Below, piece after piece: positions 12,574 through 16,020 of a stretch of 57,134 bases of DNA. The notes below the pieces were generated by a model that did no database searches, was not told the DNA's origin, and saw nothing but the letters and a program-made list of their open reading frames with translations. Source of the DNA: Singulisphaera sp. (GTDB lineage: Bacteria > Planctomycetota > Planctomycetia > Isosphaerales > Isosphaeraceae); assembly GCA_027451445.1 (NCBI GenBank), contig DAIDJG010000083.1:1-57134 (forward strand), in the 5' to 3' direction. Numbering within the stretch: the stretch's first letter is position 1; the number at the start of each line of letters is the position of its first letter. Made by a program: the position numbers and the translations under genes.

Positions 12574-13884
12574 TTAGCGCACGGCAACCGACTCGCCCGA
12601 GGGAGCCCTGAGCGACTTGAGAAACGCGAGAATCGCATCCTGGTCTAACGGCGATGCGGCGAGGAACTTGGCCGTAACGTCGCGGGCTTCGCCGCCGTGC
12701 AACTCGATCGCCTCACGGAGGGTCTTCGCGCGTCCGTCGTGGAGATACGGACCCGAGTCGGCCACACCCCAGAGCGGAGCGGTGCGCCACTCGGCAGGGG
12801 TTGGCTGCTCGGAGCTGGCAAAGCGGTCGTTCTGGATCGCCGGCTGCGGAATGATCGAGCCGTAGTATCCTGTGCTCGACTCCAGCTCGACCCCCATGTC
12901 GTGCAACAGCATGTCGGAGTAGATCCCTGCGACCGGACCGAGCTGCTGGGAATGACAGTCGGCACAGCCAATGGCGGCGAAGCGCTCCTGGCCGGCCTTG
13001 ACCAACGCAGCTTCCTTGCGATCGCCTGGTAGGATTTGCCCCGGGACGGGCAGGGCGCGGATGAAATCCGTGATCAGCACACACTGCGCGTCCGTGAGAT
13101 CCTCGCCTTCTGCTTTGTAGTTCAATTTGCCGAGGGGCGTTGCCTGGGGCCGGCCGGGATTGGAGAGGCCGAGTTCGTTGGCACAGGCCGCCTTCACGAA
13201 ATCGCTCAAACTTGCAAATTCGGCCTTCCAGCCGAACCGCCCGATTCGGCCGTCGGCCAGGCGCGCGATTCGGCCGCGCGTCTTGCCGTCACGTGCGCCG
13301 CTCAGACCGACCAGCCGGGCTGCAGTCGAGTGTTCGCGCTGGTGGGCCAGAAGTGTCTCGTCGGGCACGGCGTCGATCAGCCCGTCGCCGAACAGCGCAG
13401 GGGTGTTCCGCTGCGTGACCACCACGTCGGGACTACGCCGACGAGAACGGTTGGTCAACTCGTCGAGCGGGATGAACGGATCGTTGGGCAGGCTCGGATG
13501 AATGAGTCGCAGGGTCTCCTGAAACTCCGGGCGCACCGCCTTCTGATGCACCACACCCGACTGCGCGATCCTCTTCGGATGGGGGTTGACGAGCCCATAG
13601 ACCGTCACGTTCTTCGAGACTGGGCCACCGCCTCCCGGACCGCCTTGCTGATGGCATTCCACGCACGACTTCGCGTTGTAGACTGGGCCCAGACCGTCTC
13701 CCTTCGTGAGCGTATCCTTCGCGGTCCACTCGCGCAGGAACAGTTCTCGACCCGCGGCGACCGCCGCTGGCGTAACCGGCTTGGGTCCTGACCGCAAATA
13801 GGGCGCGGCAAGCTTCACGAGCGGCCCGATGATGAGCATCAACGCGAGCCCGTGAACAGGCCGAAGCCGGAACGTAACGGCCAT
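12574..13884 (-). CDS. Di-haem DUF1111 family protein (cytochrome-c-peroxidase-like)
   Basis: A 436-residue exported c-type cytochrome. ATG 13884 has a strong GGAGG 6 nt upstream and is followed by a hydrophobic export/anchor segment (LALMLIIGPLVKLAA). Two CxxCH haem motifs are present: CVECH near residue 80 and CADCH near 320, plus the family signatures FGDGLIDAVPDE, RFGWKAEF and SGPYLHDGRAKTL. DUF1111 members are di-haem oxidoreductases related to MauG/bacterial peroxidases and act in the periplasm; the substrate is unknown. A second copy lies at 55203-56564, and the two share the same motif order but are clearly diverged. Confidence 0.88.
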   Translation of the reverse strand: MAVTFRLRPVHGLALMLIIGPLVKLAAPYLRSGPKPVTPAAVAAGRELFLREWTAKDTLTKGDGLGPVYNAKSCVECHQQGGPGGGGPVSKNVTVYGLVNPHPKRIAQSGVVHQKAVRPEFQETLRLIHPSLPNDPFIPLDELTNRSRRRSPDVVVTQRNTPALFGDGLIDAVPDETLLAHQREHSTAARLVGLSGARDGKTRGRIARLADGRIGRFGWKAEFASLSDFVKAACANELGLSNPGRPQATPLGKLNYKAEGEDLTDAQCVLITDFIRALPVPGQILPGDRKEAALVKAGQERFAAIGCADCHSQQLGPVAGIYSDMLLHDMGVELESSTGYYGSIIPQPAIQNDRFASSEQPTPAEWRTAPLWGVADSGPYLHDGRAKTLREAIELHGGEARDVTAKFLAASPLDQDAILAFLKSLRAPSGESVAVR

Positions 13885-14016
13885 GCTGGACCTCCGATGA
13901 GCGCTCAAACGAGCATCGCGTGAGCTGTTGGCTCAATGATAGCGAGCCGCGAGCGCAAAGCCACCTCGGAGGGCGACGGATTGCCCTTGGAGTGGAACGA
14001 CGTGGGTACGGAGTGC

Positions 14017-14436
14017 TCACTCTTGCCCGGAAGGCTCGCCCGATCGTTTCTTCTTGTCGCCGGTCATCTCTTCGAGCACAGCGCGAACTTCTTTGGCCTG
14101 CTTGGCGTCCAGCGGATGGGCCTTGAGCAGGTGGAGGACCAGAAGGCCGGGTTCACCCTGGTAGAGCTTGTCGACAAGGTTGCTGACCCGTTTCTGGCGG
14201 ACTTCCTGAGAGCTGACCACAGGCCGGTAGACGAACGCCAGCTCGCTCCGATCGCTCGTGATGACACCCTTCGTCTCGAGCCGGTCAAGCAGCGTGGCCA
14301 CAGTGGCGTAGGACCATTGGCGTCCGGCTTCCCGGAGCGTTTCGAGCACTTCACGGACTGTCGCTTGACCACGGTCCCAAAGGACCTTGAGGACATCCAG
14401 CTCCGAGTCGGGAATCGTCGTGGGGCGCTTGGCCAT
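14017..14436 (-). CDS. blaI: BlaI/MecI/CopY-family transcriptional repressor
   Basis: A 139-residue winged-helix repressor. Visible: IPDSELDVLKVLWDRGQATV and WSYATVATLLDRLETKGVI, the BlaI recognition helix region, with the Tyr-Arg-Pro turn (FVYRPVVS) and a dimerisation tail ending Lys/Arg/Glu-rich. BlaI proteins dimerise on palindromes of the ACA-N2-TGT type and are inactivated by a zinc peptidase (BlaR1, family M56). Here the divergent neighbour is instead an M48 peptidase with a zinc ribbon. Two GACA-N2-TGTC palindromes lie in the shared promoter region, one inside the predicted promoter of this gene, which suggests autorepression. Gene symbol by family only. Confidence 0.9.
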   Translation of the reverse strand: MAKRPTTIPDSELDVLKVLWDRGQATVREVLETLREAGRQWSYATVATLLDRLETKGVITSDRSELAFVYRPVVSSQEVRQKRVSNLVDKLYQGEPGLLVLHLLKAHPLDAKQAKEVRAVLEEMTGDKKKRSGEPSGQE

Positions 14437-14537
14437 CGGCGGTGATCTCGAACACGGATGCGCAATACGCCCGCGCCCGCGCCGTGTTGGGTCACCGCGA
14501 GGCGGGGGCCGGGGTTGACCATCGCCCCCGACCCCCG

Positions 14538-14567
14538 TATCCTAAGACAACTGTCTCATAACGTCAA
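14538..14567. promoter_or_regulatory. Interlocked divergent promoters for blaI and the M48 gene
   Basis: On the + strand, TTGACC at 14515-14520 and TATCCT at 14538-14543 are 17 nt apart and drive the M48/epimerase pair. On the - strand, TTGACG (reverse of 14562-14567) and TAGGAT (reverse of 14539-14544) are also 17 nt apart and drive blaI. The two -10 boxes overlap almost completely, so the promoters face away from one site. This is prediction from consensus only. Confidence 0.6.
14545..14556. promoter_or_regulatory. Probable BlaI operator 1
   Basis: AGACAACTGTCT has perfect 5-bp arms (AGACA/TGTCT) around two bases, fitting the ACA-N2-TGT core bound by BlaI/MecI proteins. It occupies the 17-bp spacer of the blaI promoter and the predicted +1 of the M48 promoter, so bound repressor would block both. 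Confidence 0.6.
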
Positions 14568-14577
14568 CCCCCCTTCC

Positions 14578-14587
14578 GACAGATGTC
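14578..14587. promoter_or_regulatory. Probable BlaI operator 2
   Basis: GACAGATGTC repeats the same GACA-N2-TGTC core, with a further TGT following. Its centre is 32 bp from that of operator 1, about three DNA turns, so two repressor dimers could bind on the same face. Confidence 0.5.
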
Positions 14588-14775
14588 TGTCATTTCTTTC
14601 CCTCCCGGAAGGTTTGTCGGTCCAAGACATACTGGCGTCTGGAAAAGCGAAAAGAGGGATGTTCTCGGCCTGCGATCAGGGATACATTGCAGCATGGGCT
14701 CCTAGAGCTATCGGCCGTGTTGAAGCGCGATCGCAGCAGCGGACTGACTCTCGAGGGCTGTCGCGGAGTGGATTG

Positions 14776-16020
14776 ATGGGCCAGGGCGGGGGCCTGAGGG
14801 GCCTGTTATGTCCCGGTTGCGGCTCACAGCTCGAGCCGCTGGATAACGGTACGCCCGAAGCACCTCGCCTTTCCTGTCCGGGTTGCGGCGAAACCTACCG
14901 GGCACGCCGGCGCGATTCGTCGCACGAACTGCCGGTCACGCGTCCGTCGAGTGCCGATCCTCCGCCTCTCGCGGGCTCTTTTTCCTTGTTCTGGCGAGGG
15001 TTTGCGCTCCGAGTCCTCGAGTGTGCGTTTTACGCGGGGACTGCCGGAGGCACCGCCCTGAGCTTCGCCTTTGGTGGCTTCGTTCCGGTGGTCCGCCGCT
15101 GGTTGGCGGACGAGGTCACGAACTGGGGACATGTGGTCGAGACGTTCGGCGGGGTTTGGGTCGTCACCGAGACTCGAGATCCCGACGCAGATATCGGCCC
15201 GATGCTCACAAGGGTCGACGCCCCCCCGCTGTTCGCGGCCGTGGACGAGGTGGCTCGCCGGCTTGGCGTCAAGTCGCCCGGCCAGATCCGTCTGACCTAC
15301 TTACCGTGCTGCGGGGTCATCGCGTGGGAACGTTCCCGCGCACTCATTCTGGGACTGCCGTTGCTCCGCGTCCTTACTCACGCCGAGCTCCGTGCCATCC
15401 TCGCCCACGAACTGGCCCACCTGGCCCGAGGTGACGCGACCCGCGCAGCGCGCCTGGCACGCTTCGTGGAAGGACTCAGCCAGGAGGTCGAACGCAACAG
15501 CGAACGGTTGCACGGACCGTTAGGCCACCTGGCCAGGATCTGCCACCTGTGGTCCGCTCGCCTCATCGGTCCTATCGCCAGAGGCCAGGAGGCCCGCGCC
15601 GACCGCTTCGCCGCGGCGATCGCGGGAGGGAGCGCCGCGGCCTCGGCGCTCGTCAAGGTCGCCCTGGTGCAGCCCCTCTTCAAGGAAGTGCTCGAACACT
15701 ACGACCCGACCGAGCCTGAAGCGCCCAACCTCTACGCGTTCTTCCGGAGCTTCTGGTACCGGCTTCCCCCCGAGATCCACACGGCCATGCGCCTTCAAGT
15801 CCTGACCAGTCCCGCGGGAACCGACGACCCCGCACACCCCCCCCTGCCCGACCGCCTGGCGCTGCTCCAGGCCTATCCCGACCCCGTTTCCCCCAATGGG
15901 GACGGAAACCCGGCCACGACCCATCTCGGCGACCTGGAAAGCCTCGAACAGATGCTGCACAACCGTCTGTTCGCGATCCCGGCCGTGGAGCCGAGCGTCT
16001 TTCACAAGGCCGGAACGTGA
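14776..16020 (+). CDS. M48-family zinc metallopeptidase with N-terminal zinc ribbon
   Basis: A 414-residue protein from ATG 14776, with GGAG 7 nt upstream. Cys12-Cys15 (CPGC) and Cys34-Cys37 (CPGC) form a zinc-ribbon; a hydrophobic stretch (about 72-106) is a membrane anchor; the peptidase motif HELAHL lies near residues 211-216 with the third ligand Glu in GQEARADRF near 272. This is the HtpX/Ste24-like layout but with one or two membrane spans. The frame is open far upstream, over its own predicted promoter, so the long form is not used. The stop overlaps the epimerase start (GTGA). Being divergent from blaI, it is a candidate sensor or protease of that repressor, by analogy with BlaR1; this is inference. 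Confidence 0.85.
   Translation: MGQGGGLRGLLCPGCGSQLEPLDNGTPEAPRLSCPGCGETYRARRRDSSHELPVTRPSSADPPPLAGSFSLFWRGFALRVLECAFYAGTAGGTALSFAFGGFVPVVRRWLADEVTNWGHVVETFGGVWVVTETRDPDADIGPMLTRVDAPPLFAAVDEVARRLGVKSPGQIRLTYLPCCGVIAWERSRALILGLPLLRVLTHAELRAILAHELAHLARGDATRAARLARFVEGLSQEVERNSERLHGPLGHLARICHLWSARLIGPIARGQEARADRFAAAIAGGSAAASALVKVALVQPLFKEVLEHYDPTEPEAPNLYAFFRSFWYRLPPEIHTAMRLQVLTSPAGTDDPAHPPLPDRLALLQAYPDPVSPNGDGNPATTHLGDLESLEQMLHNRLFAIPAVEPSVFHKAGT

What the first reader, a model, noticed from the sequence alone, without database searches (positions are those of the whole stretch)
14515..14590. Interlocked divergent promoters with two BlaI-type palindromes control blaI and an M48 peptidase
Both promoters have near-consensus boxes at 17-bp spacing, their -10s overlap, and one GACA-N2-TGTC palindrome lies in the spacer of one and at the +1 of the other. 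A second lies 32 bp away (three turns). A zinc peptidase next to BlaI recalls BlaR1 but is of family M48 with a zinc ribbon and no penicillin sensor, so the signal would be different.
Basis: partly seen in the sequence, partly recalled or inferred. Interest (0 to 1): 0.62.

Follow-up and report, generated by a model that had tools for sequence, protein, structure and literature searches.

The report
Self-repressing switch with M48 protease
In a family of planctomycete bacteria, a BlaI-type repressor and an M48-type zinc protease are transcribed back to back from overlapping promoters that carry conserved repressor-type palindromes, which suggests a relative of the penicillin-resistance switch with a different kind of protease as partner.

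Summary
Two facing promoters (TTGACC-N17-TATCCT, + strand; TTGACG-N17-TAGGAT, - strand) have overlapping -10 boxes. GACA-N2-TGTC sites lie at 14546-14555 (O1) and 14578-14587 (O2), 32 bp apart. They are the only two such sites in the window.

All 39 blaI orthologues keep at least one site, in 38 of them O1 between the -35 and -10 of blaI. O2, at 32-34 bp, is found only where the M48 gene is directly divergent (14 of 21 genomes; 0 of 16 otherwise), largely together with the M48-facing -35 box. A distant relative from another family has the same divergent pair and a site in the same promoter position.

The genome's nine other BlaI genes all sit beside an M56 (BlaR1-type) peptidase gene on the same strand. 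This blaI alone is paired with M48, and divergently.

Repression of both genes by this BlaI is well supported, although binding is not shown. That M48 senses a signal and cleaves BlaI is plausible but untested. I call it a new variant of the BlaI-peptidase module.

The parts
14017..14436 (-). blaI-type repressor gene (139 aa, PF03965)
   Evidence: Pfam E 1.6e-29; homologue of solved BlaI 1sd4 and MecI 1okr, E about 9e-13; no cysteine
14539..14544 (-). -10 box of blaI, TAGGAT
   Evidence: kept in nearly all orthologues
14562..14567 (-). -35 box of blaI, TTGACG
   Evidence: kept in nearly all orthologues
14515..14520 (+). -35 box of the M48 gene, TTGACC
   Evidence: present in 14 of 21 adjacent pairs, 0 of 16 decoupled
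14538..14543 (+). -10 box of the M48 gene, TATCCT, overlapping the blaI -10
14546..14555 (.). operator O1 GACAACTGTC (core of the 12-bp palindrome AGACAACTGTCT)
   Evidence: present at this place in 38 of 39 orthologous blaI promoters
14578..14587 (.). operator O2 GACAGATGTC, 32 bp from O1
   Evidence: spacing 32-34 bp in 14 genomes, only with M48 adjacent
14776..16020 (+). M48-family zinc peptidase gene (414 aa; HELAH 211-215, E272; N-terminal CxxC...CxxC; hydrophobic stretch about 80-111)
   Evidence: Pfam M48 E 1.1e-11, 45.3 bits vs cut-off 20.3; conserved catalytic residues
16017..17162 (+). NAD-dependent epimerase gene overlapping the M48 stop codon; found next to M48 only within the genus
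12574..13908 (-). di-haem oxidoreductase (DHOR) gene downstream of blaI, possibly co-transcribed
   Evidence: Pfam DHOR E 1.5e-23; next to blaI in 11 other genomes

Best explanation
An autoregulated, BlaI-repressed divergent switch. A BlaI dimer on O1 sits at once in the blaI promoter spacer and on the start region of the M48 promoter, so one bound dimer blocks both genes. A second dimer on O2, three helical turns away, lies just upstream of the blaI -35 and about 30 bp inside the M48 transcript; it tightens repression of M48, perhaps cooperatively. Supported by comparative sequence evidence: the operators, the interlocked promoters and their conservation. Inferred: the membrane-type M48 peptidase is activated by an envelope signal, cuts BlaI (directly or through a cascade), both operators empty, more M48 and BlaI are made, and new BlaI resets the switch. 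The regulatory part alone I rate at about 0.9; the proteolytic loop, given the regulatory part, at about 0.5. The confidence given is for the whole statement.
For: O1 is kept in 38 of 39 orthologous blaI promoters, with TTGAC before and TTAGGAT after it. The pattern TTGAC-N6-8-GACANNTGTC occurs once in the 10.9-Mb own genome, at blaI, and in 37 of 45 family genomes, mostly at blaI; control 3 hits. O2 at 32-34 bp in 14 of 21 adjacent pairs and 0 of 16 decoupled; O2 and the M48 -35 box agree in 33 of 37 genomes. M48 genes that have moved away carry no such site. Where O2 is missing, O1 is usually the perfect 12-bp palindrome (22 of 25), and where O2 is present it usually is not (3 of 14), as if one stronger site makes up for two. 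Distant family f4: two genomes have M48 divergent from a BlaI, one with TACATGTGTC inside TTGACA-N17-TAGCAT. All nine other BlaI genes of the genome have an M56 peptidase beside them, so a peptidase partner is the rule. M48 was not found without blaI: 37 of 39 genomes with blaI have it, 0 of 6 without. BlaI has no cysteine, so no CopY-type metal release.
Against: No binding, expression or cleavage data. The tree shows only one main separation of blaI and M48, so the genome counts are not independent. The S. aureus cleavage residues Asn-Phe are His-Leu here, invariant but in a segment that may be conserved for other reasons. Where M48 has moved away it has no operator, so BlaI control of M48 is dispensable in a large clade. 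M48 topology is unknown; the structure model was too poor to use (pLDDT 38).
Confidence: 0.5

Rival explanations
1. BlaI simply represses itself and M48, an HtpX-like quality-control protease; the inducer is a ligand or another protease (for example one of the nine M56 peptidases), and M48 never touches BlaI.
For: M48 proteases such as HtpX are housekeeping membrane proteases (own knowledge); the only, weak, solved-structure match is HtpX (E 0.098); nine BlaR1-type peptidases are in the same genome and could act in trans.
Against: Both genes are kept in 16 of 18 genomes in which M48 is no longer found under the operator, which suggests a link beyond transcription; BlaI has no cysteine.
Confidence: 0.38
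2. The palindromes serve blaI alone (autorepression), and the M48-facing promoter is a by-product of the overlapping -10 sequence (TATCCTA reads as TAGGATA on the other strand).
For: TATCCT on the M48 strand is often kept even where M48 has moved, because it is the blaI -10 read backwards; O1 alone is near universal.
Against: A separate TTGAC or TTGAT at 17-18 bp from TATCCT, and O2, are kept across about eight genera in the adjacent state and missing in the decoupled state.
Confidence: 0.07
3. The palindromes are bound by a different regulator, for instance another BlaI paralogue.
For: The BlaI paralogue on contig C138 also has GACACGTGTC upstream; family operators share the KACANNTGTM core (PMC7253601).
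Against: The site follows this blaI orthologue in 39 genomes; most other paralogues lack it upstream.
Confidence: 0.05

Closest known systems
BlaI-BlaR1 / MecI-MecR1 beta-lactam switches of Staphylococcus aureus and Bacillus licheniformis
   Same: BlaI/MecI-family winged-helix repressor; N2-spaced palindromes in a divergent promoter region; autoregulation (inferred here); zinc metallopeptidase (gluzincin) gene next to the repressor
   Different: peptidase is M48, not M56; no penicillin sensor; peptidase divergent from the repressor; no beta-lactamase; residues at the cleavage position are His-Leu in place of Asn-Phe
BlaI-M56 pairs of the same planctomycete genome (nine copies)
   Same: BlaI paralogue beside a zinc peptidase gene without a recognised penicillin-binding domain
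   Different: M56, same strand and directly downstream of blaI
CopY/CopR copper repressors
   Same: operator core KACANNTGTM, often two sites (PMC7253601)
   Different: no CxC metal-binding motif, no cysteine at all in this BlaI; no copper exporter gene alongside
HtpX / Ste24 (M48) membrane proteases
   Same: HExxH plus distal glutamate, N-terminal hydrophobic segment
   Different: N-terminal zinc ribbon in many members; genetic link to a BlaI repressor

Membership tests
BlaI/MecI/CopY repressors (PF03965) | family profile match and solved homologues | tested here: met
   103 bits vs cut-off 22.6; 1sd4 and 1okr at E about 9e-13
BlaI/MecI/CopY repressors (PF03965) | binds an N2-spaced ACA..TGT palindrome | not testable with these tools
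   site conserved at 39 orthologous promoters, binding not measured
CopY copper repressors | C-terminal CxC metal site | tested here: not met
   no cysteine in the protein
BlaR1-BlaI system | M56 peptidase domain in the partner | tested here: not met
   M48 45.3 bits over cut-off 20.3; M56 16.3 bits under cut-off 31
BlaR1-BlaI system | extracellular penicillin-binding sensor domain | tested here: not met
   no such Pfam match in the 414 aa
BlaR1-BlaI system | repressor is cleaved by the partner peptidase (Asn101-Phe102 in S. aureus, PMC9834060) | tested here: inconclusive
   aligned residues are His-Leu, invariant in orthologues; cleavage itself not testable
M48 peptidases | HExxH and distal Glu ligand | tested here: met
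   HELAH 211-215 and E272 in at least 97% of orthologues
M48 peptidases of HtpX/Ste24 type | membrane integration with active site on the cytosolic side | tested here: inconclusive
   one clear hydrophobic stretch 80-111, a weaker one near 278-298; model unusable

The most novel reading that the evidence does not exclude
A signal-transduction module in which an M48 (HtpX/Ste24-like) peptidase has taken the place of BlaR1 as the anti-repressor of a BlaI protein, in a planctomycete order and beyond, with an unknown non-beta-lactam signal.
Probability: 0.4. Interest if true: 0.7.

Novelty: new variant of a known kind. Interest (0 to 1): 0.52.

Why it matters
BlaI-family repressors are common in bacteria, yet the best-known signals are beta-lactams and copper. 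A module with a different class of peptidase, a compact two-operator switch, and a natural series of relatives in which peptidase and repressor have been separated offers a clean way to ask how BlaI proteins are released. It would also show that the repressor-plus-peptidase design is not tied to the M56 family.

Tried and rejected
Genome-wide regulon: RGACANNTGTCY occurs 12 times in the own genome against 10 for the reversed control, and only the window site has the promoter context; rejected as evidence of a large regulon. Operators overlapping a -35 (TTGACANNTGTC...TANNNT): 22 hits against 2 in 45 genomes, some shared by related genomes, but real promoters inflate such a count; kept as a lead only. 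The genome-contig scan gave only one close relative. Literature searches found no paper on a BlaI-M48 pair in the held library. The tree-aware test of adjacency against O2 has only one independent pair, so it cannot reach significance.

Full report
What is there. The stretch 14515-14590 lies between a blaI-type gene on the - strand (14017-14436) and an M48-family peptidase gene on the + strand (start probably 14776). Each gene has one sigma-70-like promoter with 17-bp spacing, and the two -10 boxes overlap: TATCCTA on one strand is TAGGATA on the other. GACAACTGTC (O1, 14546-14555) lies between the -35 and -10 of blaI and over the start region of the M48 promoter. GACAGATGTC (O2, 14578-14587) lies 32 bp further on. 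These are the only two GACANNTGTC sites in the 57-kb window. About one such site per window is expected by chance, but no two within 60 bp turned up in 5 Mb of simulated sequence.

Where it comes from. The window is contig 83 of a 10.9-Mb draft genome. The genome of the same genus (G009) corresponds to a record titled Isosphaeraceae bacterium MAG_BA398, so the host is a planctomycete of family Isosphaeraceae.

Phylogenetic footprint. I collected the blaI orthologue and the M48 orthologue in 45 family genomes and read the DNA upstream. All 39 blaI orthologues examined carry GACANNTGTC in the promoter; in 38 it sits in the place of O1, in the frame TTGA-n7-9-GACANNTGTC-TTAG-AT or close to it. 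In G040 O1 has decayed and O2 remains. The pattern TTGAC-N6-8-GACANNTGTC occurs once in the own genome and in 37 of 45 genomes, mostly at this gene; the reversed pattern occurs 3 times in all.

O2 belongs to M48. Where M48 is the direct divergent neighbour, O2 is present in 14 of 21 genomes at 32-34 bp; where other DNA separates them or M48 is elsewhere, in 0 of 16. The M48-facing -35 (TTGAC or TTGAT, 17-18 bp from TATCCT) shows the same pattern, and the two features agree in 33 of 37 genomes. M48 genes that have moved away have no such site in 500 bp upstream. In genera g2 and g17 a small lipoprotein gene, with a TATAAT-like box before it, lies between blaI and M48. Caution: on the tree all decoupled genomes form one clade, so this is one large event plus a few smaller losses (G037/G038, G014, G004, G011), and simple significance tests overstate it. 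A side observation fits joint action of the two sites: where O2 is absent, O1 is nearly always the perfect 12-bp palindrome AGACANNTGTCT (22 of 25); where O2 is present it usually is not (3 of 14). This too is affected by shared descent.

Beyond the family. A class-level search found three distant M48 relatives (32-35% identity). In two of them (family f4) a BlaI gene is again directly divergent from the M48 gene, and in one the blaI promoter reads TTGACA-N17-TAGCAT with TACATGTGTC in the spacer. The layout is therefore probably older than the family.

The repressor and its paralogues. The repressor is a clear BlaI/MecI homologue without cysteines, so release by a CopY-type metal site is ruled out. 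The genome has ten BlaI-family genes. I checked the neighbours of the other nine: each has an M56 (BlaR1-type) peptidase directly downstream on the same strand. None of these nine peptidases shows a penicillin-binding domain in Pfam; several carry carboxypeptidase-regulatory-like domains. So a zinc peptidase partner is the rule for BlaI in this organism, and the gene in the window is the exception in using M48 and in being divergent.

The peptidase. Pfam gives M48 (45.3 bits, cut-off 20.3) and only sub-threshold M56. HELAH and the distal E272 are conserved in at least 97% of orthologues. A hydrophobic stretch lies at 80-111. The N-terminal zinc ribbon (CxxC...CxxC) is present in the window protein but missing in several genera. 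Structure prediction with two sequences was not usable. BlaR1 cuts BlaI between Asn101 and Phe102 (PMC9834060); the aligned residues here are His-Leu and do not vary, which neither supports nor excludes cleavage.

Link between the two genes. M48 orthologues occur in 37 of the 39 genomes with the blaI orthologue and in none of the 6 without. In the two exceptions (G003, G012) the contig ends just upstream of blaI, so a missing piece of assembly is possible. The pair is kept in the genome even after the shared promoter is lost, which hints at a functional link at the protein level, but this is weak evidence because descent is shared.

Mechanism. Best supported: BlaI on O1 represses both promoters at once, and O2 strengthens repression of M48. 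Inferred: M48 is the signal-activated protease that relieves repression, giving a self-amplifying and self-resetting switch. Main rival: M48 is only a regulated target, and another protease or a ligand releases BlaI. What BlaI controls besides itself and M48 is open. The di-haem oxidoreductase gene follows blaI in 12 genomes and could be read with it. A few dual or -35-overlapping boxes occur before HlyD-like, redoxin and small secreted-protein genes in single genera, without proof that this BlaI binds them.

Verdict. Observation confirmed; interpretation supported at the level of comparative sequence evidence; proteolytic loop untested. It is a new variant of the known BlaI-peptidase module. 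I found no description of a BlaI-M48 pair in the held literature; most subscription-journal papers are not held, so absence there is not proof.

Noticed in passing
window 12574-13908 (-): Di-haem oxidoreductase (DHOR) gene directly downstream of blaI, same strand; the same neighbour is found next to blaI in 11 other family genomes, including one (G013) where M48 has moved away.
   Followed up: partly
window 16017-16020: The M48 stop codon overlaps the start of an NAD-dependent epimerase gene (GTGA); this neighbour was found only in the same-genus genome.
   Followed up: partly
own genome contigs C449, C67, C160, C503, C295, C392, C471, C223, C138 (L155-L163): Nine further BlaI genes, each followed by an M56 peptidase on the same strand; C392 and C471 hold nearly identical copies; several peptidases carry carboxypeptidase-regulatory-like domains and none shows a penicillin sensor in Pfam.
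   Followed up: partly
L078, L079, L081, L082, L083, L086 (between blaI and M48): A small lipoprotein gene (signal peptide ending GCSGE, helical repeats) preceded by a TATAAT-like box sits between blaI and M48 in genera g2 and g17.
   Followed up: partly
L109:1501-1547, L110:1501-1547, L115:1501-1545: Pairs of GACANNTGTC boxes 35-37 bp apart, the first overlapping a TTGACA -35, upstream of an HlyD-like gene (two genomes of one genus) and a redoxin-domain gene: candidate further targets of a BlaI protein.
   Followed up: partly
L114:1501-1546 (G000:C117:43336-43381): A second pair of GACANNTGTC boxes in the own genome, 36 bp apart, between a FAD monooxygenase gene and a membrane-protein gene, without a clear promoter.
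   Followed up: partly
window 14546-14555 and relatives: O1 is a perfect 12-bp palindrome in 22 of 25 genomes without O2 but in only 3 of 14 with O2, as if one strong site replaces two weaker ones.
   Followed up: partly
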